Positions 2,400-22,800 of a DNA stretch of 64,000 bases are shown in pieces. Each line of letters opens with the position of its first letter. Positions within the stretch are counted from its first letter, which is position 1. The notes beneath the pieces were generated by a model. That model was not told where the DNA came from, ran no database searches, and was given only the letters and a program-made list of their open reading frames with translations. Source of the stretch: Bidens hawaiensis (taxonomy: Eukaryota > Streptophyta > Magnoliopsida > Asterales > Asteraceae); contig JAIQDT010002059.1 in the NCBI GenBank assembly GCA_021521415.1, positions 343,275 to 407,274 of the forward strand, read 5' to 3'. The translations under genes were made by a program, and so were the position numbers.

Positions 2400-4680
2400 T
2401 TGTTGAACCATTTAAACAAGGCTTCCCTTCCATGAAGTTTGTCCTCCCATGTCGCTTTTGAAATACTCGAATCCGCCATCAAATGGTTTAACATCAAATA
2501 GCAAGAGTTCGTTTCCCATCATATGCCAGGTGCAATCACTATCTAAGTACCTAATACTATTGATAGTCCTCCTTGATTGACCCTGCATGCACTAAGCTTT
2601 CAAATAGACATGGGTTCCCGGGATACTTTTGTCCCGGGAAGGTCAACCGTAAATCGACCAAACTTGATTTTATTTCCTGAAAACCATTTATTTCTTGTTG
2701 GAGCCTCACTTGATGAAGAGCGCTCCTTAGGAATCCAAGCAAAAACTTGTTCCTTGGTTTTGGCAATTTTGGACTTCTCTTTTCTAGCTTTTGAAATTGT
2801 TTTTGGTAAATCCTCAGACTTTACAGTCTTTGGATCATTTTTGATTTTATCCTTCTTGGTTTTCCAAAAAGGTTTCTTTTTGTGTTTTAATTTATTTACT
2901 TTGGATCTCACATCCACTTCACTAGGTTTACTATCAGCTTGATCAGTCCTTGAATCAGGGCTACTAAAAGCTCTTTTTGGGGACTGACTAAGCCGCCTTT
3001 GAATATCAAGTTGTTGCTTGAACCAGTGCTTGCAATGTCTTGCAAGGTGAGAAGAGTGACCACACACAAAACAACACTTTCTCCTGGGAGTGCCAAAGAA
3101 CTCATCTGAACTATAATGTGGTTGGTGTGGTGGGAAAGGTGATCCATGGAAAGTAACATGATTATAAAACACATTTGTATAATATGGATCAACAAAATTT
3201 TGTTGATAATGACCATAGTAGTTGTTATCACAGAAGTTGTATGACTAAGGGTTTCTTGATTGATTGGTTGTTTGAGAAAATGATCGTTTATTTGGTGGAA
3301 CATATTTACACGACGTACTTGTCTTTTCATTTTCAAAAACTTTGCTTTTACATGAATTATCCTCAGTCTCACAACTTGATGATGAACAACTTGATATGTT
3401 CACCTCAACATGCCTACTTTCGTTGACACATTTTTCAACAAAAGTTTCATCACAAACGGTTTCATAATCTGAGTCAGAAGAAGAACATTCACTTTCATTA
3501 CGTACATCATTACAACTGTCTTCGCTAGTGGTTTCGTAAAATACAGTTTTTGATTCCGACATCAAACATCCTAACATGGATTCACAAACTTTATTACAAA
3601 CTGGATTGTTAATAGTTTTGGTTAGATCCACACATGATTCAAAACGTGGTTCTAACTTTCTTTTTAGCTTACAACCCAGGTTAACCGTCGCACATTCACC
3701 ACCATTTACATCACCAGCTGCTACACAAGACACATTGATGTCAAATTTATCAGATGATGGGACTGGAGCAGCAGTTTGAGAGGCAGCAGGAACAAATTTC
3801 ACAGGCGTTGGTATTCTACCAACCCTGTATTCTATTTCTTCCTCTGGAAAAGTATTATAGCTAAAGTGGGGCAAACTGGTGTAGTTATCATTGAATGGTG
3901 GTGGTACAGCAGTGTAATCGTACCCCAACCCCGCTTTAACATTAGTACTTCTCTGGGATCCAATAAGATCATCTAACTTCTCAGATGATGCCTCAAATCT
4001 TTCGACTTGTTTTTCCTTTTCTTTCTTATCAGAAACTTCGAGTTTTAATTTCTTAATTTATTCTTTTAAATCATTAATTATGTCTTTATAATAAATGACA
4101 TTATGCTTTTCTCGAAAAATTTCAAGTCTAAGATTAGCTACATCATCGTGATGAGTTTTAATCTTTTCAACGTAGATCTTGTCAGCTTTTACATATTCAG
4201 CATTTAACTGACGAAGTTTTGCATTTTCTTTCAAAACTTCGTCTTGATGATATCTATAGTATGTGACTTTGTTGATGAATGCTTAAGAACAAAGATTGTG
4301 ATTTACCTCATCAGCTGGTGATGTGTCGGGAATGATAGGACATGCATGACTACTTTTACCGGCAGCACTTGTCCCAACTTTATTTTCTTTGAACTGATTG
4401 TTCATTTGGAGCTTATCTTCCATTATTTCAAAAGACTTGATGGTAGAAGCCAACTCTGAGAGTGTCATGGTATGCAAATTTGTGGTTCTTTTGATGGTAA
4501 CCACATTGATGCTCCATGTATAAGGCAGTGAACTCAACAGCTTCATGTTGATCTGAAACAAACCATTGATGATACCAACACTTCTCATTTTGGTGACGAG
4601 TGACTAAAATCTGTTGATGAGAGAGGAAATCGATTCTCCTTTAATATGTGTAAACATGTAAGACATTTTTTTTAACTTGA
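2400..4680 (-). pseudogene. copia gag-protease remnant with CCHC zinc knuckle
   Basis: Reading from 4680 downward, the first block (about 4670-4283) resembles the UBN2-type gag domain. A coiled-coil-like stretch (about 4280-3930) follows, then a Ser/Cys-rich linker (3928-3245). In 3172-2600 there is a C-X2-C-X4-H-X4-C knuckle (CFVCGHSSHLARHC) followed by a Lys-rich tail. Downstream (about 2580-2500) lies a region similar to the copia protease/pre-integrase junction: a LDSDC word stands where LDSGC is usual, and a HMMG word follows. Several stops and frame changes separate the blocks, so it cannot make a full Gag. The N-terminal part of gag is replaced by the minisatellite at 4700-4940. Confidence 0.8.
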
Positions 4681-11189: not shown

Positions 11190-12007
11190 TCAAATTACTA
11201 TATATAATAAATAAGAAGTTTTGTGACACAACCACGTAATTGGTCCATGCGGCCTCACGTGGTAGGTCTACCTTTTTATTTGTTTTTCGTTTTTAAATTT
11301 GTGTCGGTTCGCCACAGTAAATACGAGTTTTTTTACCGTTGACACCGTTAAATGGTTCCGGCCAAATTCGCGTAAGTCACGATCGCAACCTAAGGCTTTT
11401 TCCCCGCAAGTTTTTTAGTCCATCGATTCTGGGCGAATTCACGTCAGGTCACAGCCACAACGCACGTATAGATTTGGTTTTCGTCACTGTCTTTTTTATG
11501 TAAATATGTTAATTTGTTGTATTTTGAGTGTGGACGAATTAACTTATTGCTATAATTTTTATGTCGTAACCCGATACCAGCCGAACTCGTGTCGGTTCAC
11601 CACTACAACACATGATTTTCTGTGTACGATTTAGTCTTGAAAACGTCGATTCCGACTGAATTCACGTTAGTTAGCAAACGGAAGACGCGGTTTTTTATCA
11701 CTTTTTTCCCTGGATTCAAGAATCAACAAAGCGTATCAGTTCGAACTGCAACGCTCGTGTTTTTTTTGTTCGCCGTAACCAGATACTAACCGAAGTGTCA
11801 TAGGTTCGTAACCGCAACGCATGTTTTGTTATGTTAATTTTGTAGTTTAGCGTTAACAGTTTTTTTTGGGGAGGAGGGGGGTTGCTTATTACTGGTTTCA
11901 TAACCCGGCATCGACCAAGTCACCTCGACTCGCAGACGCACTACACGATCTGATAAGTTGTACGAGGAATAACATCAACCCGGCACAACGCACGGGAATC
12001 TTCCTAG
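11190..12007 (+). mobile_element. Probable non-autonomous Helitron with degenerate internal repeats
   Basis: Left end TC followed by AAATTACTATATATAATAAATAAG resembles plant Helitron 5' ends. The right end is CCCGGCACAACGCACGGG (short stem-loop) a few bases before CTAG at 12004-12007, with T following, as expected for a Helitron 3' terminus. The base before TC is C, not the usual A, so the 5' end is less sure. Internally it repeats a degenerate ~110-130-bp theme (TAACCCGATACCAGCCGAACTC..., CCGCAACGCA) at about 11341, 11421, 11565, 11640, 11770 and 11897. No coding capacity. Confidence 0.5.
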
Positions 12008-12033
12008 TTCCACATAAATTTCATTTAACAAAA
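11884..12033 (+). repeat. Left ~150-bp direct repeat flanking the endogenous virus
   Basis: GCTTATTACTGGTTTC at 11884 to CATTTAACAAA near 12033 is repeated in the same orientation at 19404-19556, with about 20 differences over 150 positions by eye. The copy includes the Helitron-like 3' end (CTAG at 12004-12007) plus about 26 bp of flank, then abuts the viral primer-binding-site end. Confidence 0.9.
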
Positions 12034-12034
12034 T

Positions 12035-12047
12035 GGTTCTGATACCA
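12035..12047 (-). other. Second primer-binding-site copy at the 3' end of the viral insert
   Basis: The minus strand reads TGGTATCAGAACC, 12 of 13 positions matching the tRNA-Met complement TGGTATCAGAGCC. With the copy at 19388-19400 it gives the insert a ~17-bp terminal redundancy (GG(T/C)TCTGATAC(C/T)AGAAG on +). This is what is expected if the captured molecule had ends at the minus-strand discontinuity of the viral genome. Confidence 0.88.
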
Positions 12048-12440
12048 GAAGTGTGGATATCTTGTTTTCATGATTTTTTGAAAATTATTTCAAAGATTAT
12101 AGTTTTTTGATTTAAGGAAAAACGAGTAAAATCATTGAAGTATAACAGTTATGAGACAGATATACCTTAGATCTCCATTGTCTCTGAACCTTTGTGATGA
12201 GTGATCAATCCAATCATTATCTTCCTATGGCCTCCTGCCTTGACGGAAATAAAAATGACTCCAGGACTCCAGATTTCATAACAAAAATCAGAGATGTTGA
12301 TAAAAAGAAATATTTTATTTCATAACTGTTTTTTCCGGAGGAAAACTTCTAGATATTTACATCATTTTCCCCTAAAGGGGAGCTTACTCACACATAGCTA
12401 AGATTACAAGGAAATTAAATTTTTCGGGAGAGTTTTCGAT
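12048..12440 (-). other. Viral intergenic leader with poly(A) signal
   Basis: About 400 nt between the predicted pregenomic transcription start (near 12435) and the primer-binding site. An AATAAA (rev. comp. at 12314-12319) sits roughly 120 nt after the predicted start, matching the caulimovirid arrangement in which the poly(A) signal lies shortly after the cap site and is bypassed once. Short purine/pyrimidine-rich blocks suggest structure, but no large stem-loop was verified. Confidence 0.6.
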
Positions 12441-12465
12441 GCCTCTATCCCTTACAATTCTTACA

Positions 12466-12523
12466 TTATATAGGAAAAACAATGAACATAAAGTTCTTTT
12501 TGTTTACGTAAGTGATTACGTAA
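12466..12523 (-). promoter_or_regulatory. 35S-like viral promoter: TATA plus as-1-like element
   Basis: The minus strand carries CCTATATAATG (TATATAA at 12472-12466). About 32 bp upstream lies TTACGTAATCACTTACGTAA (12523-12504), two TTACGTAA half-sites 12 bp apart. In the cauliflower mosaic virus 35S promoter the as-1 element (paired TGACG sites) sits at a similar distance upstream of TATA and binds TGA-type bZIP factors. The match here is by architecture and half-site core. Activity is unknown. Confidence 0.75.
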
Positions 12524-12622
12524 TTATCTTCATAATTGAACCCGTGTGGGGTCCTAATTACGTGTCCTCCATTATTTGACCGAGAGGTTGTCGCTTTGCC
12601 TGCTTTATTCACATGCTTGCTT

Positions 12623-14072
12623 TTAATCAATGAACCCATGTGTAGGGTCCAATCCATGTGTATCCTCCATCATTTCGTCTGAGAGGATGTCACTTTCTCT
12701 GCACTCTTCACATGCATGATTTTCTATTATGCGTGCCAGTTCTTGACATAATAATTTTCTAGTGGCCGGACCTACATCAAGTTGATTGAGAACGATTCGT
12801 TGCTCAATGGTCTCTATTGCATTTTTTTCATGAACAGGTAGGGGGGTTCCACTGTAACTAGTAATTATGCAGTTTTGGCTGCAGTAATTAATTTTCTTAA
12901 AACTTCCAACTTTAATCTGCTGAAGAGTCTTTAAGATTTTTAGATACCCATTAACTCTAATGGAGACCCAATTGCTGACATCTTCTTTTTCTTCCATGAC
13001 TTTGGAAGATTGGACATTTCTTGTTTTAGCTAAGCCAACCTCTAATAAATGTAAGGCGGGAAAGCTTTTTCCTTGATACCAATCTGGTATCGCAGAGGTG
13101 CATTCAATATAAATGTTAGCATCTTTGGCAGCTGCAATCTTCTTTCTGAAGGTTTTTATAGCCTTCTGTGAACAAGTTAATTTCTTGTAAATTAGCAGAA
13201 GGATATATACATTTAATTAGTCCAGCAGAAAATGCAAGAGAAACTAAATGAGGATCAGATCCTGGACAGAAGTTGTATAGACTTTTTGATGTCTTGTCTT
13301 CTGTGTATATATTTTCGACTTCAAAGTCGTCCGGGCTAAGAGCCCTAGCTTTAGACCAGACTGATCGGAATTCGTCCAAACTTATTATGTCGATTTCTTC
13401 ATTCTGAATCTCTATTCTTTTTTCTGATTTTCTTTCAAATGGTGAATTAGAAAAGTTAACCGGTGATATTCTTGTTGTCTTTACTACAGGTGTAGGAAAG
13501 ATAGAAATTCTTAATGGAATTTCTTTTTTCCCAAATTCTGCAGAAAATCTTGTGGCTTCTTGTTGGGCTTGTAACAAGGAGCTGAATTTTTTGTAGGGAG
13601 CTGATGTATTCTGGACATATTTTGAGACAATAGCCCAGTCTGCATAAATTCCTCTGTGGTCCCCATAAAAAATGACGTAGAATCTTGAATTTTGATTTCA
13701 TGGAGATGTCACCTTTTGAGCATAGGTTGTTTTAATAGTTTTTGGCAAACTATCAGCCATAAACGGATTTGAGTATTCTTTACCGGAGCCGTTTGCTTCC
13801 GGACTAAAAGATGATTGTGGCTCATCTTTTGCCTCATGTATGCTTTTTCCCAAAGCATCAGGGATCAACGGACTTGATTTTTCTTTACCTTTAGCCGTTT
13901 GTAAAGGAATAGATTCTGTTTTTAGACTTTCGTCTTCCTGTACAGAATTTACAGTTTTGGTGTTAAGCAATTCATTGTATAACACAATTTGCTGTTGCAC
14001 AGCTCGTAATTCTATTAAAAGAATTTTTTCTTTTAGGCATAGGGCCTTGATTTTTTCTTTTTCTTCTTCCAT
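12623..14072 (-). pseudogene. Transactivator/viroplasmin (ORF6) of the endogenous virus, broken
   Basis: In caulimoviruses this protein builds inclusion bodies and permits reinitiation of translation on polycistronic RNA. The start is placed at ATG 14072: it lies ~50 nt beyond the 19S-like TATA and opens a Lys/Glu/Leu-rich N-terminal coiled-coil-like segment. The upstream ATG at 14123 in the same frame adds 17 residues but overlaps the promoter. A Caulimo_VI/RNase H1-N-like patch (FYVIFYGDHRGIY) is readable at about 13680-13640, and a Cys-containing acidic tail ends at 12623. Breaks: an in-frame TGA at 13698-13700 just before the viroplasmin patch, and a frame change near 13116-13160. Overall span fits the family's ~500 residues. 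Confidence 0.85.
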
Positions 14073-14125
14073 CACAATTCTTTTTCTAAATGAGGGTGTG
14101 ATGAACTTTCGAAAGAGACGCATTC

Positions 14126-14160
14126 TATTTATAGAAAAAGATTACGTCATTGCTTACGTA
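14126..14160 (-). promoter_or_regulatory. 19S-like subgenomic promoter: TATA plus as-1-like element
   Basis: The minus strand reads TACGTAAGCAATGACGTAAT (14160-14141), a paired TACGTAA/TGACGTAA motif of as-1 type, followed 7 bp later by CTATAAATAG (14134-14125). It lies just upstream of the transactivator gene, where caulimoviruses place the 19S promoter. The stop codon of the polymerase gene (14154-14156) falls inside the as-1-like motif, so coding and promoter functions overlap. Confidence 0.72.
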
Positions 14161-16169
14161 TTTTGAAAGTCACGTGTCAAGCTATCAGCTAGCACGTTTT
14201 TTGGTCCTTCAAGATGTTCATTATTAAAGGAATATATTGAAAACCACATTTGCCATCTGACTAGGCGTCCTTGCTTATTATCTCCTGAAATTTTTGGTTT
14301 TTAGGAAATAAGTGAAGTTTTTATTATCTGTCCTGACTAGGAATTTTACAGGGGTTAGATAAATAGAAAACTTTGAAATGGTGTTTTTTACCGCCAGTAA
14401 TTCTTTTTCATTACTGTGGTAGTTTCTTTCAGCTGGTTTAAAACTTCCAAAGGTGTATTTACAAATTTCCTCTCTATCAGCTGTTTTTGCCTTTAAGACC
14501 CCACCCCAAAAGTCATTTGAGGCATCAGTTTCAATTATAAGAAAATCTTCTTCTTTTGGAAGATAAAGTCTAGGAAAACTTTTTAAGTTTTTTTTTATCT
14601 TTTTAATATAATCTGTATCGGCTTCTTTCCAATCCCATACATATTCCTTTTTTAATTTTACCTGTAGCGGCTTTCTGAGCTCTGCAAGCTTCGGGATGTA
14701 GCTTTCGGCATAAGTTAAAACACCAAAAAATCTTTGCAGATGTTTTTTGTCTTCTAAAGTATTTGGAAATTTATGTAAATTTTCCAAAATATGTTTTTGT
14801 GGACAATGAGTTCCTTGATCTATTTCAAGACCTAAAAAGTTTATCTTTGTTTTAAAAAGATTTGCTTTCTTTTTTGACAAAATAATTCCATATTTTTCAA
14901 TTGTTTTTAAAACAGATAAAACATGAAAATAGTGATGTTCCTCAGAGTTAGAAAATATTATGATATCGTCTACATAGACGGTATAATAATCTTCTAATCC
15001 TCTTAAAGCATTCTGCATATGTCTTTGAAATATACTAGGTGCTTGTTTTAATCCGAAAGGAACTACCTTCCATTGATAATGACCATCAGGACATGTGAAT
15101 GCAGTTAGTAACTGAGATTCTTCATCTAATAGTACCTGCCAGAAACCACTTTTGCAGTCGAAACTAGAAAATATGGTTTTTCCTCTTAAGAGGGTTAGTA
15201 ATTCTTGCATACACGGAAGATTATGACTATCTCCTATTGTTGCTAAATTAACCGCTTTATAATTTACTACCATTCGCTTTTTTCCTCTTCTTTTTTCAGC
15301 TTCATTTTCAACTAGAAATGCTGGTGACATATGAGGTGACTTACTTGGAACAATTAATTTTAGCTCAAGCAACTCTTTAATTTGTTTACTAAACTCTTCT
15401 CTATCTTGTGGACTGTATTTCATTGGTTTTACCCTGATTACAGTCTTAGGATCTATTAATTTTATTGACGCTTTCATCCAGTTTTTGGATTTTTCTAGGT
15501 CAATGGGATTTTCTGAGCATACTTTTTCAAGTAGTGCTTCTATTTTTTGATATTTTTGTATTTCTATGAAATATTTTTCTTCTGGTTTTATAACTTCTTG
15601 AGTTATATTAGTACCAGGTATTTGCTTTGTTTTTGAATCTTTTTTCATTGACTCAAGAAAATCGGGGTTCCCAACGCGAAGTGCTTTGGTTATTTTCTTA
15701 ATCAGAATCATTTCTTGATTAAGGTGAAAACATATTCTGTCTAACCATTGTGTAAAGGTCCATAAAGCTGACAGAAATTATTTCCAATGAGTAAATCTAT
15801 TCCTGATTCCTGCCGATAAATGGTAGGAATAGGAAATGGTTCTCCTGAAAAGTAAACTATAAGATTTCTCCAAACCTTATTTAGTTTGATTGTTTCTTCA
15901 TTAGCTATAGTTACTTTAATGTCCTTGGGTGTGTTTTCCCAAAGTTCTTCAAGGATAACGTACTTACTTGCTAGACAGAGGCTTGCTCCGGTATCAACAT
16001 AGCAATGTAAAGTTATCGTTTTATATCCTTTTAGAAAAACTTTTCCTTTGATATAAATAGAGTTGGGATTGGTTATATTAGCATAAACCAATTCCTCTTG
16101 TTTTAAAATATTTTGATAAAAATGTAATTTGCCTAATTCATTTTCTTCCCGCTTATGAGTTGTAGTCAT
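14154..16169 (-). pseudogene. Viral protease-reverse transcriptase-RNase H polyprotein (ORF5), broken
   Basis: It starts at ATG 16169, overlapping the coat protein stop as ATGA. The N-terminal ~140 residues contain the aspartic protease active site YVDTGAS. The RT part (15711 downward) shows FDCKSGFWQV (motif A) and YVDDIIIF (catalytic YxDD), followed by the connection region and RNase H residues: IETDAS, SNEKELLAV and RTDNKNF. A final NVLADSLTR patch lies past a break. Breaks: frame change between 15741 and 15770, separating protease from RT, and another near 14278-14295 just before the RNase H end. Span equals about 670 codons, the usual size for caulimovirus P5. All catalytic Asp/Glu residues visible are retained. 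Confidence 0.92.
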
Positions 16170-17555
16170 TCTGAGTCAGTAGAATCGTCAGAAGAGTCGT
16201 ATTTGACTGTTAATGAATATACCTGAGTATACCCATCGTAAATGTTTTCAGAAGGAAAATATCCTTCTTCTTCAGCTTCTAAAATGAGCTTTGTTTTTTC
16301 TGGGAATTTTTGTCGGTTAGGACATTCGTTGGCATAATGTCCTTCTTCAGAACATATCCAACATCTGCATTTTTTCTTTCCTTGCGGGCAGATTTTTGGT
16401 TTTTCTTTTGAAAAATATTTTCCTGGCGTAAATTTTTTCTTCTTGGTTTTCCAGAACCTTCTTTTTGTATATTTTCTTTTATATTTCTTTTTGAAGTATT
16501 TTTTTATCTTTGGGTGGGTCACATCCAAAGGATAATTGAGGTATTTCAGTTAAAGTACTCCAACATTTTTTGTTAAATCTTTTTAACTGTTTTTGTTTAT
16601 TGGAGAAATCACAATAGACTGCTATTTCTTCTTTAACAATTCTTGTAGCAAATCCGATGGAATACATAGTAAAAGAATTCTTTTCTTTATTCCATATTTC
16701 TTTGGCTTTTTCTCCTACTACGGGGATTTTCATTAAGTAGGTTTATATCCATGAATGATATTCACCCGTACTTAATTTGTACAAGTTTTGCTCAAATAAG
16801 CAAGTGAAATCGTCTAAAAGACATATATCACATAATTGTGCTTTCGTAAGATTTTGTCTTGCTTTTTCCAGCAATTTTTGATTTTCTTGATCTTTATTTG
16901 TAAGAAAATCAAGACCTAAAAACATCATATACATGGCGTTTATTAGTTCATCAAAGAGGTCTATACCATTCATATTTTCATTCCAGGTTGTACCTTTAAT
17001 GAAATCTTGAATATTTCCGGAAGATTTATGTTCTCTTAGTAATAAAACTGCTTTAGCATTAGAGAACTCTTCTGGATTGGATTGGATAATGAGACTAATC
17101 TCAGTATTCCATTTGTCTATAACTGATTTTCTTTTTTCAAGATCGAAGATACAGTCTATTTTAATAGTGTCAATTGTGGTTGAACTTCCATTATTAGAGT
17201 TTTGTATACCTTTGTGATAAGGCATAGAAAATTCTACATTTTTCTTTTTGTGGCTAGTATAACTAGTACTGGCCCTATTTGTTATACTATTGTACATAGG
17301 AGTGTATTCTTCAGAAGAACTTTCATCTTCAGTTATAGGTTCTAGTGTTATATCTTTTTCATTTTTAGGTTCTTTGAATGTAAAAACCTTTTCTGGAAAA
17401 TATTTGTCTCTAAGGCTTTTATTTTCCGCAAATTTTTGTTCGCATTATTTATCACTTAGTGACATTAGTTGAACTAGTTCATGTATTTGTTCAGCTGAGC
17501 CTGTCTCTAACTGATTGTCAAATATTTGTTCTAGCCTTTGAGAGATAGAACTCAT
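16166..17555 (-). pseudogene. Viral coat protein (ORF4), broken
   Basis: It starts at ATG 17555, overlapping the preceding ORF's TGA. The acidic N-terminal region (Glu/Asp/Ser-rich, about 17380-17300) is followed by the conserved core and then a Lys/Arg-rich stretch with a zinc knuckle C-X2-C-X4-H-X4-C (CWICSEEGHYANEC, around 16360-16310) and an acidic Ser/Asp tail ending at 16166. Precapsid and capsid proteins of caulimoviruses have this layout. Breaks: in-frame TAA at 17445-17447, in-frame TAA at 16743-16745, and a frame change near 16500-16530. Length (~463 codons) fits the family. Confidence 0.9.
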
Positions 17556-18102
17556 TTTTTTGTTTTGTTAAGCTCTTGAATTTCTCTTTCAAGTTTTAAC
17601 TTTTGCTTTAATAACTCGGATAGAGTTTCTAATTTGTCACCTGGGTGCATACTCCAGTCATCCTGAATTATGCTGAATTTTTGAATTATGTGACACTTTT
17701 GTAGCTCAATTTTAATAATTTAGACATCTCACATGGGCTTCTTTTCTCTTTTAAAAGGTTATCACATGGGCGTTCTTTTAAAAGATTATCACATGGGCGT
17801 TGTCCTTTCATGTCAGTTTTTTTTTTTTTTTAAGAAATGTATTTTTTTTTTAATATTCTATGGTTCTTTCGTACCAAAAGGCCATTTTAATGCATTTGGA
17901 CATTTAGAACTTCCTAATGACGGAAGATTTTTGTGTGTTGTTCCATCTTTTGAGGCTTAGCTTCCTCTATTTTATCAATCTTTTCTGAGACATCCTTAAT
18001 GATCTTTGCAGCTATAGTCTCTAGATTTTCATTGGTAGATAATTTTTCTACTTTATTAGTTAAATCTCTAATTAATTCTTCTAACTTTAGAAGAGAACTC
18101 AT
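17552..18102 (-). pseudogene. Virion-associated protein-like ORF3, with insertion
   Basis: It starts at ATG 18102, overlapping ORF2's stop as ATGA. The first ~50 residues form a heptad-like coiled coil (LLKLEELIRDLTNKVEKL), as in the tetramerising N-terminus of caulimovirus VAP. Reading is lost after 17914 by a frame change. A second coiled-coil-like segment (LETLSELLKQKLKLEREI, about 17650-17590) runs to the TGA at 17552. Between them 17720-17870 carries poly(A)-rich DNA and three ~27-33-bp repeats, making the gene ~150 bp longer than the usual ~130 codons, so an insertion is inferred. Confidence 0.7.
17722..17815. repeat. Three short tandem repeats inside the viral ORF3
   Basis: The word (A/C)TCACATGGGC(G/T)T recurs at about 17729, 17762 and 17789, with TCTTTTAAAAG between copies, followed by poly-T runs to 17852. 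Unlike viral flanks it has no reading frame, suggesting insertion or replication slippage after integration or in the parent virus. Confidence 0.7.
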
Positions 18103-18329
18103 GTTGTGGTTATTAGAGTTCTTCTCGCTTTAAGATTAGAGAGTTTCTTTTTAGCAACAGCTAATTCTTGTTTGAAGAATCTTATATTCTGAGCTTTTAT
18201 GTTATCCTGTAACATAAAGTTATATCTAGTTTGGTTTATTTGGCCTTCGTATCTCAGAATTTCACTTTTTTCAAAGTTAATTGCATCATCTAGAGCTTTA
18301 ACTGCTTCTATGATTGGCGTTAAAGGCAT
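18099..18329 (-). CDS. Small viral ORF2, 76 aa, intact
   Basis: The ATG at 18329 overlaps the movement protein stop (TAATG), and its stop overlaps the next start (ATGA), the close packing typical of caulimovirid polycistronic RNA. The protein is Lys/Leu/Asn-rich and predicted mostly helical (EILRYEGQINQTRYNFMLQD, KKKLSNLKARR). Its position matches the aphid-transmission-factor ORF of caulimoviruses, but it is half that length and I see no specific motif, so the function is not assigned. It is the only main ORF in the insert without a visible break. Confidence 0.6.
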   Translation of the reverse strand: MPLTPIIEAVKALDDAINFEKSEILRYEGQINQTRYNFMLQDNIKAQNIRFFKQELAVAKKKLSNLKARRTLITTT

Positions 18330-19307
18330 TATATTCCTATAACCTCTTTAAGAATTTCTCCATGCTTATCTATTCTTTCTGACATAGATCGTATTAATTG
18401 TATTTCTGTAGAGGTGGAAGTTGGTTCTCTAGTTCTTAGAGTGTGTCCAGAAAAACTATGTCTAGGTCTAGACTCTAAAATTTGTTTATCTCGAGCTATG
18501 TTTATTGCCCAATTTTCTTGAAGTTGTGAAGGTTCAGTGAATTTACTTTCTTCTACTGTTCCTATATCTGAGAATACATCTTCGATTGTTATACTCTCTT
18601 TGTCTTTATACTCTATTGAATGAGTATTGTTGGTAATAGCATACGATATTAGATAATTAATCGTAAATACTTTATTTCCTGGTTCCATTAGATCAGTTCT
18701 TTCGCATTGATGTATGAAACTAAGAGTTTTGTCGAAATCTCTTGAATCTCGATGTAAAGCAAAAATACGGTAAACATAAATTTACCATAAGCTAAATTTC
18801 CTTGTACTGCCCCTAAGAGAGCATCTTGTCTGTTAATGATTCTATTATCAACAACAGCCATTTTTATAGGAAAATTAATTCCATCTCTAAACTGTGCTTT
18901 TAGTAAGATTTTTACCGCTCCTATATGCACCATGTTCATTGATTTTCTTAATTCGGGTTTAATAGTCAAAAGTCTTTTTGCTATTTCTTCTTTAGTTAAG
19001 AGTGGCAAAAATACTTTTCCCGATGTATCCTTTATGTCTACTGAAAATTCTTCAGTATTAAAGCAGTAAAGGATTTTATTTTTTCTTGAAAAAGCCTTTG
19101 AAACTAGGCTTTGCAAACTATTAGGTTGATTAAAACCTGTCTATTATCAAGCTTGAACTTAAGCTTGCTTATTTTTGTTAATTGGTCAAAATTAATCATG
19201 TAATCTGACTGAAAACCTCTTTCATTTTCACTAAAGTTGATAACTTCAGTATTTTGTTTGTATGATTCTTCAGAATCATCTTCAATCAGAAAATTTTTAT
19301 TTTCCAT
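18329..19307 (-). pseudogene. Viral movement protein (ORF1, 30K-like), broken
   Basis: Movement proteins of this family form tubules through plasmodesmata. The first ATG after the primer-binding site is at 19307. The reading then passes through three frames: 19307 to about 19104, about 19140 to 18688, and about 18710 to 18329. Two frame changes therefore break it. The middle block, with KIL, GAVKILLKAQFRDGINFPI and NRQDALLG patches, fits the 30K core; the last part is the Ser/Glu-rich C-terminus. Combined span of ~327 codons equals the usual caulimovirus length. It is assigned from position, size and general pattern; a profile search would settle it. Confidence 0.78.
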
Positions 19308-19310
19308 TTT

Positions 19311-19400
19311 AACTGAGCCTAAGGCTTAGTGTTTAATTATAGCTGAGCACAAGGCTCTGACATTAATTTTTAAAAAGCTGAGCACAAGGCTCTGATACTA
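19311..19400 (-). other. Viral 5' end: primer-binding site and repeated GAGCCTTGTGCTCAGCT
   Basis: The minus strand starts TAGTATCAGAGCC (19400-19388), one mismatch to the tRNA-Met complement. AGAGCCTTGTGCTCAGCT then occurs at about 19393-19376 and again at 19358-19341, and a diverged third copy (AAGCCTTAGGCTCAG) precedes the movement-protein ATG. The repeats lie in the short leader between primer-binding site and ORF1. Confidence 0.8.
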
Positions 19401-19403
19401 GAA

Positions 19404-19556
19404 GCTTATTACTGGTTTCGTAACCCAGCACCGATCGAAGTCACCTCGACTCGCAGCCGCACTACACAATTTAATAAGTTATACGAGTAATAACATCAAC
19501 CCAGCGCAACGCACCAGAAACCTAAACCTAGTTTAGCATAAATTTCATTTAACAAA
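19404..19556 (+). repeat. Right ~150-bp direct repeat flanking the endogenous virus
   Basis: Same orientation and extent as 11884-12033, including the Helitron-like CTAG (19528-19531) and the shared CATAAATTTCATTTAACAAA. Most differences between the two copies are transitions. It separates the virus end from the PSRP1 upstream region. Confidence 0.9.
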
Positions 19557-19855: not shown

Positions 19856-22800
19856 ATGGCAGCTTTTTATGCATCACCAACTCCAACCATACAATTAACC
19901 AAAACCCATTTGCCCAAATCATCTCCTGTCTTGTTTTCTTCAAGCAAATCCAGTTTCTTGAAATCTAGTTCATTTTTCAAGATTGCTGTTCTTGATGTAC
20001 CCAGAAGCTGCATCATCAAGCAAAAGACTTATGGGATTAAGATGTCATGGGATGGGCCTTTGTCATCTGTGAAATTGATCCTTCAAGGCAGAAATCTTGA
20101 GGTAGTTTACTTAGTTTTTTTTTTTTAATTTAATTTTTCATGAAAAATTGGATAAAAGAGTAGTGTTTTAATGTTATCATTCATAGATCTTTATAGCCCT
20201 TTTTGGATAGTAAAATTAAGTCTTTTAAAAATTACATTTATTTTTTTAATATTTAAAAATAATTTGCTTAGTTTTTGGACAGAAATCTTGAGGTAGTTTA
20301 CTTAGTATTTTTTTTAATGTTATTTTTTAATTTACTTTTTCATGAAAAATTGGGTAAAAGAGTAGTGTTTTAAAGTTTACACTCATAGATCTTCATAACC
20401 TTTTTTGGATAGTAAAATTAAGTCTTTTAAAATTTACATTTATAGATTAGGGGTGATAAGTCTTGGGGTGTGCACGGTTCGGTTTGGTTATCATCCTAAA
20501 CTGAAACCAAAGTTATAGGTTAATCTATTTTATTAATCAATAGGTTTTAGGTTAATTGGTTTGGATTATTTGGTTAGTTTGTTGATTTTCGGCTGGAGCC
20601 GAGGTTAATAACCAAAAGTTCAAAACCAGACTTGGGAATGCTTAGAAATATATGAAGTGGAGATATAAAAGCTAGAATTATATTAAAGTATGAATGGTTC
20701 GGTTCGCTTAAGTTAACTGAGGGTAAAAAAAACTGATAACTGATTTTCAGTAATTTCTGTTCGGTTAACAGTTTGGTTATTGCTCACCATACTCATAGCA
20801 TTACTATTCATGACTCGTTGGACTCAACTAAATAGCCCGATAGTCTCAGGCACGAGGGAAGCAAAAGTATCAAATGCAAATAAGATTTTGGAAATTTGTT
20901 GTAAAAAAAGAGTTATTTATATATTTATTTATTATTATTATTTTTGGCTGTTTAAATTTGAGCTAATTTGATGATTGTATGAAACAGTTGTCTGAATCTG
21001 TGAAGAATCATGTGGAAGATAAAGTCGGAAAGGCGATTCAAAAGCATAGTCATCTTGTTAGAGAAGTTGATGTTCGGCTTTCTGTTAGAGGTGGAGAAAT
21101 TGGAAAAGGCCCTAAAGTTCGACGAGCTGAGGTCTGTTATTATTATTTTGTGTAATTTTCTTTAAAATTAGGGTTGATTTCTCGAAAGAGAAGATAATAT
21201 CCTCGTTTTACTGATCATAAGACTGGAAACGAACCGAAATTTTGGCAAATTGTTTGTTTATGCTCGTTCGTTTAACAAATGAAAGAACATGGACAAGTAA
21301 TTTCGTTCTGTTAACTAAATAAACGGACAGTGTTCATGAATGTTCGATAACGTGTTCGTTAATGTTTGTTTGTTTATGTTTGTTAATAAGATTTTTAATG
21401 ACTTTTATAAGTTTATCATATAGATTAAGCTAAATAATTAACTATAAAACAAAAATATATATAGTATTATGTAATTAAGTAATATGTAAAATTAACATAT
21501 GAATTTGAATGTTAAAGAAACACCACCACAAACTTGGTAGCGAGACCGAACGATTGACACTGACCATTCCCGGTTAGCCAAATCAAATAAAACATTGTTT
21601 GTCAGTTGTTCGTGAACCGTTCGCGTCGGTTCGTTTATAGGTCAATCTATGTGGTTATTGTCTTAATTTTGATGAAGTTACTTTAAAAACATAGGTTACA
21701 TTATTTACCAAGAAACATGGAGTTATTCGGGCCGAAGAGGAAGCAGAAACATTGTATGCAAGTATAGATTTAGTATCATCTGTGATTCAAAGAAAACTAA
21801 GGAAAATCAAGGAGAAAGATTCAGATCACGGTAGACACATGAAGGGATTCGATAGGCTGAAAGTTCGGGACCCACAAATATTAATAAATCAAGATTCAGT
21901 TGCGGTTCCGCAAGAAGAAGAAGATGATGTTACAAGTGAAGGCTTTACAGAAGATCTTGTCCCAAAGGTTAGCATATGGTTTTTAATTTGAATTATGATT
22001 TTCCAATTATATATCTTTATCATTATTATTATTATTGTTGTTATTATTATTATTATTATTATTATGATGTGTAGCTAAGTTGTAAATAATTTTTATTAGA
22101 TCGTTCGAACAAAATATTTCGATATGCCCCCGTTGACTGTTGAGGAAGCGATTGAGCAACTAGAGAATGTTGACCATGACTTTTACGGCTTCCGAAATGA
22201 AGAAACTGGTAAGACTTTTCGCTATGTTTCTCGACTTCACTTTGCTTTAGTGTCGATTTGGGTAACGGGTCAACCCACAAAGACTGTTTGTTGACTTTTT
22301 TTGGAACTTTATAATTAGTTTATGTGCTATACATGCTTACAAAAAGTTTATTAACCCAAACCATTTCTTTTTGTAAATGATTTAAGAGTGAGTTATGCAT
22401 TTTTTTTTCTTTTTTACATTTTGGATTTAAAAACTGATAGTTTCTAAAGAATGTGACCATAACTTTATCCTTTTTTGTAGAGTTTTTTCAAACTTTTTGA
22501 ACCTTTTTTTTTTTTAATGAGTTAGGAATAAGGAATTAGTTATGCACTTTTTTAACATTTTGTATAAAAGAATGGTAATTCCTGTAGAATGTTGGCCATG
22601 GCTATTTACATTTTTGTTGACTTTCAATCCGTTGACCCGTTGGATAAAAAACATAATACAAATCGACCCATTTAGCTGCTACCCGCATTTTGTATTATTT
22701 GGTGTAAATTACTAAATATTAATGATGTTTTTTGATTCCAGGTGAAATTAATATTTTATACAAAAGAAAATCAGGAGGATACGGGATAATAGTTCCGAAA

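What the first reader, a model, noticed from the sequence alone, without database searches (positions are those of the whole stretch)
12035..19403. Single, nearly full-length endogenous caulimovirid with all six main genes in order
All cores survive: 30K-like movement protein, coat protein zinc knuckle, DTGA protease, YVDD reverse transcriptase, RNase H acidic residues and a viroplasmin-type transactivator. Roughly ten lesions break five of the six genes, so the copy looks moderately old. The only visible intact ORF is the 76-aa ORF2, which is half the size of the known caulimovirus ORF2. I cannot tell whether this is a known genus; the small ORF2 and the minus-strand layout are worth a phylogeny.
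Basis: partly seen in the sequence, partly recalled or inferred. Interest (0 to 1): 0.9.

Follow-up and report, generated by a model that had tools for sequence, protein, structure and literature searches.

The report
Dahlia-type virus captured in Bidens chromosome
A complete but broken copy of a dahlia-mosaic-type plant virus sits in what is most likely a Bidens (daisy family) chromosome between two copies of a 149-base piece of host DNA, and several related copies carry similar flanking duplications, a clue to how virus DNA without its own integration enzyme gets into chromosomes.

Summary
In detail: window 12035-19403 (minus strand) is one full-length, broken caulimovirid. Polymerase phylogeny joins it to Dahlia's endogenous DMV-D10 within Caulimovirus. 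The assembly matches Bidens hawaiensis by size and contig count.

It is not single: 150 VAP matches were scored in this genome, all over the cut-off. It is not old: about 0.7% private substitutions, roughly 0.4-0.7 My, strict bound 1.9 My. The 76-aa ORF2 is no stump: 119 matches reach down to 29% identity, 53 of them full-length without a stop.

New here: the copy is opened at the tRNA-Met primer site and lies between two 149-bp copies of one host site, a Helitron end plus 25 bp of unique flank. Such duplications, 29-149 bp, flank 4 of 10 testable proviruses; a 381-nt viral fragment has a clean 66-bp one. I infer capture of linear viral DNA at a staggered break, with fill-in copying the target. 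One anomaly remains: the window's two repeats differ about 3-10 times more than the virus copy's own decay suggests.

The parts
12035..19403 (-). full-length broken caulimovirus provirus, opened at the tRNA-Met primer site
19388..19403 (-). viral 5' terminus: 3 nt plus primer-site 13-mer (19388-19400)
   Evidence: 20 other copies compared
12035..12050 (-). viral 3' terminus: second primer-site copy (12035-12047); 12033-12034 are a 2-nt filler
11884..12032 (.). target copy TA: Helitron 3' end (to 12007) plus 25 bp of unique host flank
19404..19556 (.). target copy TB, contiguous with the unique downstream host flank
11278..12007 (.). 3' part of a dispersed Helitron-like element (family unit matched by other genome copies)
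18329..19307 (-). movement protein gene, broken (about 2 frame changes)
18099..18329 (-). ORF2, intact, 76 aa, predicted helical hairpin
17914..18102 (-). open first part of VAP (ORF3, DNA-binding protein); the gene is broken here
17552..17811 (-). extra ORF between VAP and CP (86-87 aa in other copies), broken here
16166..17555 (-). coat protein gene, broken; CCHC knuckle at about 16316-16366
14163..16169 (-). polymerase gene: protease 15744-16169, RT-RNase H frame 14278-15711 open, C-terminal remainder to 14163 in another frame
12623..14123 (-). viroplasmin/transactivator gene, broken (about 2 frame changes)
14127..14160 (-). 19S-type promoter motifs (TATA 14127-14133, as-1-like 14142-14160); motif match only
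12466..12523 (-). 35S-type promoter motifs (TATA 12466-12472, as-1-like 12504-12523); motif match only
19856..22291 (+). neighbouring host gene, S30AE family (plastid ribosome hibernation factor type, name recalled); start codon about 450 bp from the virus; exon borders approximate

Best explanation
A linear, complete genome of a DMV-D10-type caulimovirus, opened at the minus-strand primer site, was captured as filler DNA in a staggered or paired-nick chromosome break, most likely in Bidens hawaiensis and within roughly the last million years. Filling in the stagger copied the 149-bp target onto both sides; the same kind of event left 29-103-bp duplications at other copies. The virus belongs to a lineage in which a 76-aa helical-hairpin protein occupies the gene position of the ~160-aa aphid transmission factor of other caulimoviruses. 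Shown: identity, ends, duplications, copy number, ORF2 conservation. Inferred: the break-and-fill mechanism, the host name, and any function of ORF2.
For: RT frame 88% identical to DMV-D10, 3-row clade with it at 100/99. Of 20 other 5' ends read, all begin at the same base but for one 1-nt shift; 11 of 20 (10 independent flanks) go straight into DNA without an adjacent provirus match. TA and TB share 22 of 25 bp beyond the Helitron end that the 20 other copies aligned do not show. The paralogous locus L060 is virus-free with this flank once, next to the gene region. Target duplications at 4 of 10 testable loci against 60 of 2,325 control points; C1060's filler holds a 16-of-17-nt match to the virus; a viral fragment in C4159 has a 66-bp duplication abutting both sides.
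Against: The window's repeats (K 0.142, CpG-masked 0.106) are far more diverged than the virus copy's private change (Fisher p 1e-8; charging every difference from the nearest copies to the window p 8e-5, with CpG masked 0.009). The host flank beside TB differs from its paralogues by only K 0.05-0.065, less than TA from TB, although introns further on are 74-82% identical. 6 of 10 testable loci show no duplication. In C1060 and C291 one copy lies 29 and 184 nt away from the virus. No significance test was run for the filler match.
Confidence: 0.65

Rival explanations
1. The 149-bp direct repeat is an older host tandem duplication, and the young virus landed exactly at its junction.
For: TA-TB divergence fits 4-7 My, the virus copy roughly 0.4-0.7 My with a strict bound of 1.9 My. 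Tandem repeats occur at random host points (2.6% of 2,325).
Against: Both copies abut the virus, but for 2 nt. The virus-free paralogue L060 has the flank once. Clean duplications occur at other insertions, and spacers in C1060 and C291 do not continue the host repeat.
Confidence: 0.25
2. The duplication was made at integration, but one copy was templated from a diverged homologue or homeologue of this polyploid, or the virus inside an older insertion was later overwritten by a related copy.
For: Explains old-looking repeats around a young virus; the host is hexaploid (title of PMC9113482).
Against: No donor allele with this flank was found in the assembly. Private changes are not piled up at the ends, which speaks against overwriting.
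Confidence: 0.25
3. ORF2 is a shortened remnant of the aphid transmission factor, still doing part of its job.
For: Same gene position; a predicted coiled hairpin such as a VAP-binding part could have (recalled).
Against: No match to PF03233 for ORF2; the same model found nothing in the genome (0 matches, 9 candidates), but no control rang, so its power here is unknown.
Confidence: 0.25
4. A new genus of caulimovirid.
For: No recognised aphid factor and an extra ORF.
Against: Polymerase 88-90% identical to DMV-D10 and P0001 and inside a 12-row clade (100/99) with figwort, mirabilis and dahlia mosaic viruses.
Confidence: 0.02

Closest known systems
DMV-D10 / DvEPRS, endogenous pararetrovirus of Dahlia (PMC9556396, parts 1-2 of 3 of the text read)
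   Same: sister polymerase (88% aa), endogenous, about 7 kb, same coat-protein start
   Different: D10 lacks about 1 kb of coat protein with the zinc knuckle and fuses CP to Pol; the window has that stretch. [quoted passage not shown] whether D10 has the 76-aa ORF2 I could not check.
[quoted passage not shown]
   Same: gene order MP, ORF2, VAP, CP, Pol, TAV (PMC10606001, passages)
   Different: DCMV has a 163-aa aphid factor with its motif; RT identity 74-79%
Endogenous rice tungro bacilliform virus-like sequences (PMC526188, passages)
   Same: junctions concentrated near viral DNA discontinuities or the intergenic region
   Different: AT-repeat flanks stressed there; here exact primer-site 5' ends and long target duplications
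Tandem duplications after adjacent single-strand breaks in plants (Schiml et al. 2016: reference entry and mention seen in PMC8316200; the paper itself not read)
   Same: proposed to work alike: fill-in of a stagger duplicates the sequence between the nicks
   Different: there made by nickases; here natural breaks with viral DNA as filler

Membership tests
Caulimoviridae | 30K movement protein, protease, RT and RNase H without integrase, in this order | tested here: met
   no integrase family in the ten pieces scanned
Caulimoviridae | tRNA-Met primer site in the genome | tested here: met
   13-mers at both ends, each with one change
genus Caulimovirus | polymerase phylogeny | tested here: met
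   with DMV-D10 and P0001 100/99, in a 12-row clade with FMV, MiMV, DMV
genus Caulimovirus | separate CP and Pol frames, VAP (PF03310) and viroplasmin TAV (PF01693) | tested here: met
   intact VAP frames in other copies
genus Caulimovirus | ORF2 coding for an aphid transmission factor of about 160 aa | tested here: not met
   ORF2 is 76 aa with no PF03233 match; 0 genome matches, no control rang. Filed therefore as a D10-type lineage placed in the genus by phylogeny, not as a typical member
genus Caulimovirus | isometric virion and inclusion bodies | not testable with these tools
   no virus particles at hand
species of DMV-D10 | at least 80% nt identity in RT-RNase H | not tested
   only the D10 protein was at hand (88% aa)
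transposon-like target-site duplication | fixed short length at every insertion | tested here: not met
   lengths 29, 66, 99, 103, 149 bp and none at 6 of 10 loci

The most novel reading that the evidence does not exclude
The D10 clade is a caulimovirus lineage that gave up aphid transmission, carries a 76-aa helical-hairpin gene in its place, and persists largely through the plant germ line. It enters chromosomes by capture at staggered breaks that copy 29-149 bp of target, so a caulimovirid insertion can carry its own paired-repeat record of the event, as LTRs do for retrotransposons.
Probability: 0.3. Interest if true: 0.8.

Novelty: new variant of a known kind. Interest (0 to 1): 0.6.

Why it matters
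Reviewers call the integration mechanism of caulimovirid DNA speculative (PMC10377300, section 3.1). Exact primer-site 5' ends, a filler that seems copied from the virus and long target duplications at several independent loci make it testable. The window copy also shows that the coat-polymerase fusion of DMV-D10, called enigmatic in PMC9556396, can be read as a deletion of about 1 kb from a normal layout.

Tried and rejected

Led nowhere: the viral-contig scan with RT (4 pattern matches, none a relative); Foldseek with the ORF2 model (0 matches at E 0.001; J9UN18, a 75-aa uncharacterised Dahlia mosaic virus protein, ranks 9th with TM 0.84/0.85, 22% identity, E 0.35); the host-gene search (best named hits in many plants, at most 64% identity, no host name). 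Of 12 copies looked at for a 3' end at the predicted place, 9 had none there; of 10 later copies, 4 had no 5' end there; one of six copies read for ORF2 (C378) had no viral ORF at the predicted place.

Dropped before the 4-of-10 count: C2405, C14645, C183 and C7028, with viral DNA in a flank, and C69 and C83, which run into inverted viral DNA. C2960 was counted as negative (G-rich match, score 20.5 against shuffle maximum 16.5). The C4159 fragment was found later by another route and is not in the count. Loci were picked because both ends were listed or predicted, not at random.
Full report
Observation. Ten minus-strand pieces scanned in Pfam gave movement protein, A3 protease, RT, RNase H and a CCHC knuckle in the right order; a second scan added VAP (PF03310) and the viroplasmin domain (PF01693). 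The provirus runs from 19403 to 12035. Each end carries a tRNA-Met primer-site 13-mer, with one change each, giving a 16-nt terminal redundancy. I count about ten breaks in MP, VAP, CP, Pol and TAV; ORF2 is intact and RT-RNase H is open for 477 aa.

Identity. The RT frame's closest relatives are P0001 (90%, metagenome contig), DMV-D10 (88%), figwort mosaic virus (79%) and Tanacetum endogenous proteins (77-79% for the two longest). A 34-row ML tree puts window, P0001 and D10 together at 100/99, inside a 12-row clade (100/99) with figwort, mirabilis and dahlia mosaic viruses. D10's protein aligns to the coat region only at 17555-17358 and from 16354 on, so D10 lacks about 1 kb with the zinc knuckle that the window has. 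PMC9556396 (parts 1-2 of 3) calls D10's fused, shortened architecture enigmatic; the window shows an undeleted form. [quoted passage not shown] I could not check which small ORFs D10 has.

Host. G000 has 3,474,515,312 bases in 15,902 contigs. The abstract of the Bidens hawaiensis genome paper gives 15,904 contigs and about 3.48 Gb (PMC9113482, passages). This is a match of size and contig number, in line with Asteraceae-type viruses, not a name given by the tool.

Copy number. With the RT frame 89 matches were scored, many 91-92% identical with open frames up to 678 aa; some stand about 7.3-7.5 kb apart on one strand. VAP's Pfam model gives 150 of 150 scored matches over its cut-off, from 229 candidates. 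These are lower bounds. In PMC9794742 (passages) endogenous Caulimovirus RTs form two clusters in nine species, Lactuca sativa among them; 'Bidens' does not occur in that text.

Age. Against four close copies at each end (about 700 nt each) the window has 4 and 6 private substitutions; two of the 5' copies align poorly in their last part, so the 5' count is a little low. That is about 0.7%, or 0.43-0.71 My at 1.64e-8 or 1e-8 per site per year (Poisson range 0.21-1.31). Charging every difference from the nearest copies (10/710 and 16/686) to the window gives 1.9%, or 1.1-1.9 My. The rate 1e-8, and the Ks and date from which I took 1.64e-8, come from PMC11170221 (passages).

The flanking repeat. 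TA (11884-12032) and TB (19404-19556) align end to end, with 130 of 149 compared sites identical and 4 gap columns, and abut the virus but for a 2-nt filler. The repeat family is dispersed (40 matches scored of 461 candidates). In 20 other copies similarity ends at a hairpin plus CTAG or a variant of it, as at a Helitron 3' end (rule recalled); beyond it TA and TB share 22 of 25 bp that the 20 do not show. So both come from one locus. Two paralogous loci show no match to seven provirus pieces; one (L060) holds the end of a related, much diverged element plus this flank once, contiguous with the downstream gene region.

Other junctions. In the 5'-end search 29 of the 40 scored matches, the window included, reach the last or last but one base. 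I read 20 of them besides the window: all begin at the same base but for one 1-nt shift. Nine have viral sequence in the adjacent flank (L064, L069-L071, L073-L075, L077, L079); the other 11, with 10 independent flanks because L065 and L076 share one, do not. 3' ends are ragged: 40 of 42 matches start within 27 nt of the window's end, the other two at 38 and 51. Ten loci, the window included, could be tested for duplications on both sides. Four have them: window 149 bp, C1060 103 bp (97/103), C1255 29 bp (27/29), C291 99 columns (86/99). Six do not: C5064, C1005, C9408, C46, C501b, C2960. C1060 has a 29-nt filler with a 16-of-17-nt match to the virus itself; the spacers of C1060 and C291 do not continue the host repeat. 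In C4159 a 381-nt viral fragment, 98% identical to copy L102, has a 66-bp duplication abutting both sides, different only in the length of a G run. In the control, 60 of 2,325 host points passed the same test (2.6%; nominal P about 9e-5, though neighbouring control points are not independent).

Mechanism. A fixed 5' end fits linear DNA opened at the minus-strand discontinuity; junctions near discontinuities are reported for rice (PMC526188, passages). A virus-like filler and long duplications fit fill-in at staggered breaks. PMC10377300 (section 3.1 and passages) names repair capture and retrotransposon help as hypotheses, and the term 'target site' does not occur in its text. Judged by titles and abstract starts, searches listed no paper on long target duplications at caulimovirid insertions; that covers the held library and those terms only.

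What does not fit. The window's repeats differ more than the virus copy's decay suggests: about tenfold by private changes (p 1e-8; CpG-masked 2e-5), about threefold by the strict count (p 8e-5; CpG-masked 0.009). The flank beside TB differs from its paralogues by only K 0.05-0.065; it is next to a gene start and may be constrained, since sequence further on is 74-82% identical. An older tandem duplication, copying from a diverged homologue, or later overwriting of the virus are open. The repeats should not be used as a clock here.

Consequence (inference). In this single copy the 35S-type promoter motifs lie near the 3' end and point outward, so by itself it should not give a full pregenomic RNA. 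The virus lies about 450 bp from the predicted start codon of an S30AE-type gene.

Noticed in passing
G000 C339:1371656-1415752: ORF2 matches repeat in two interleaved series, five each at about 3.39-kb steps: a tandem array of a partial viral unit.
   Followed up: no
G000 C13964:330625-352870 and C11526:440-8158: Head-to-tail viral units: ORF2 matches 7,347-7,348 bp apart (four) and 7,512 bp apart (two).
   Followed up: no
L139 (C4159), 495-1010: A 381-nt viral fragment with a 66-bp target duplication on both sides, fused to a host open frame of 159 aa.
   Followed up: yes
window 19856-22291: The neighbouring gene is of the S30AE/S30AE_C type; two paralogues without the virus exist (C17, C1540).
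   Followed up: partly
window 20118-20443: 124-bp direct repeat, 91% identical, 202 bp apart, in the first part of the neighbouring gene.
   Followed up: no
window 17747-17800: Two 27-nt tandem units inside the broken extra ORF between VAP and CP.
   Followed up: partly
window 2600-4057: Open frames with a CCHC-like motif on the minus strand, perhaps a retroelement gag; no Pfam match for the piece scanned.
   Followed up: no
BFVD J9UN18: A 75-aa uncharacterised Dahlia mosaic virus protein has a similar predicted hairpin (TM 0.84/0.85, 22% identity, E 0.35, not significant).
   Followed up: no
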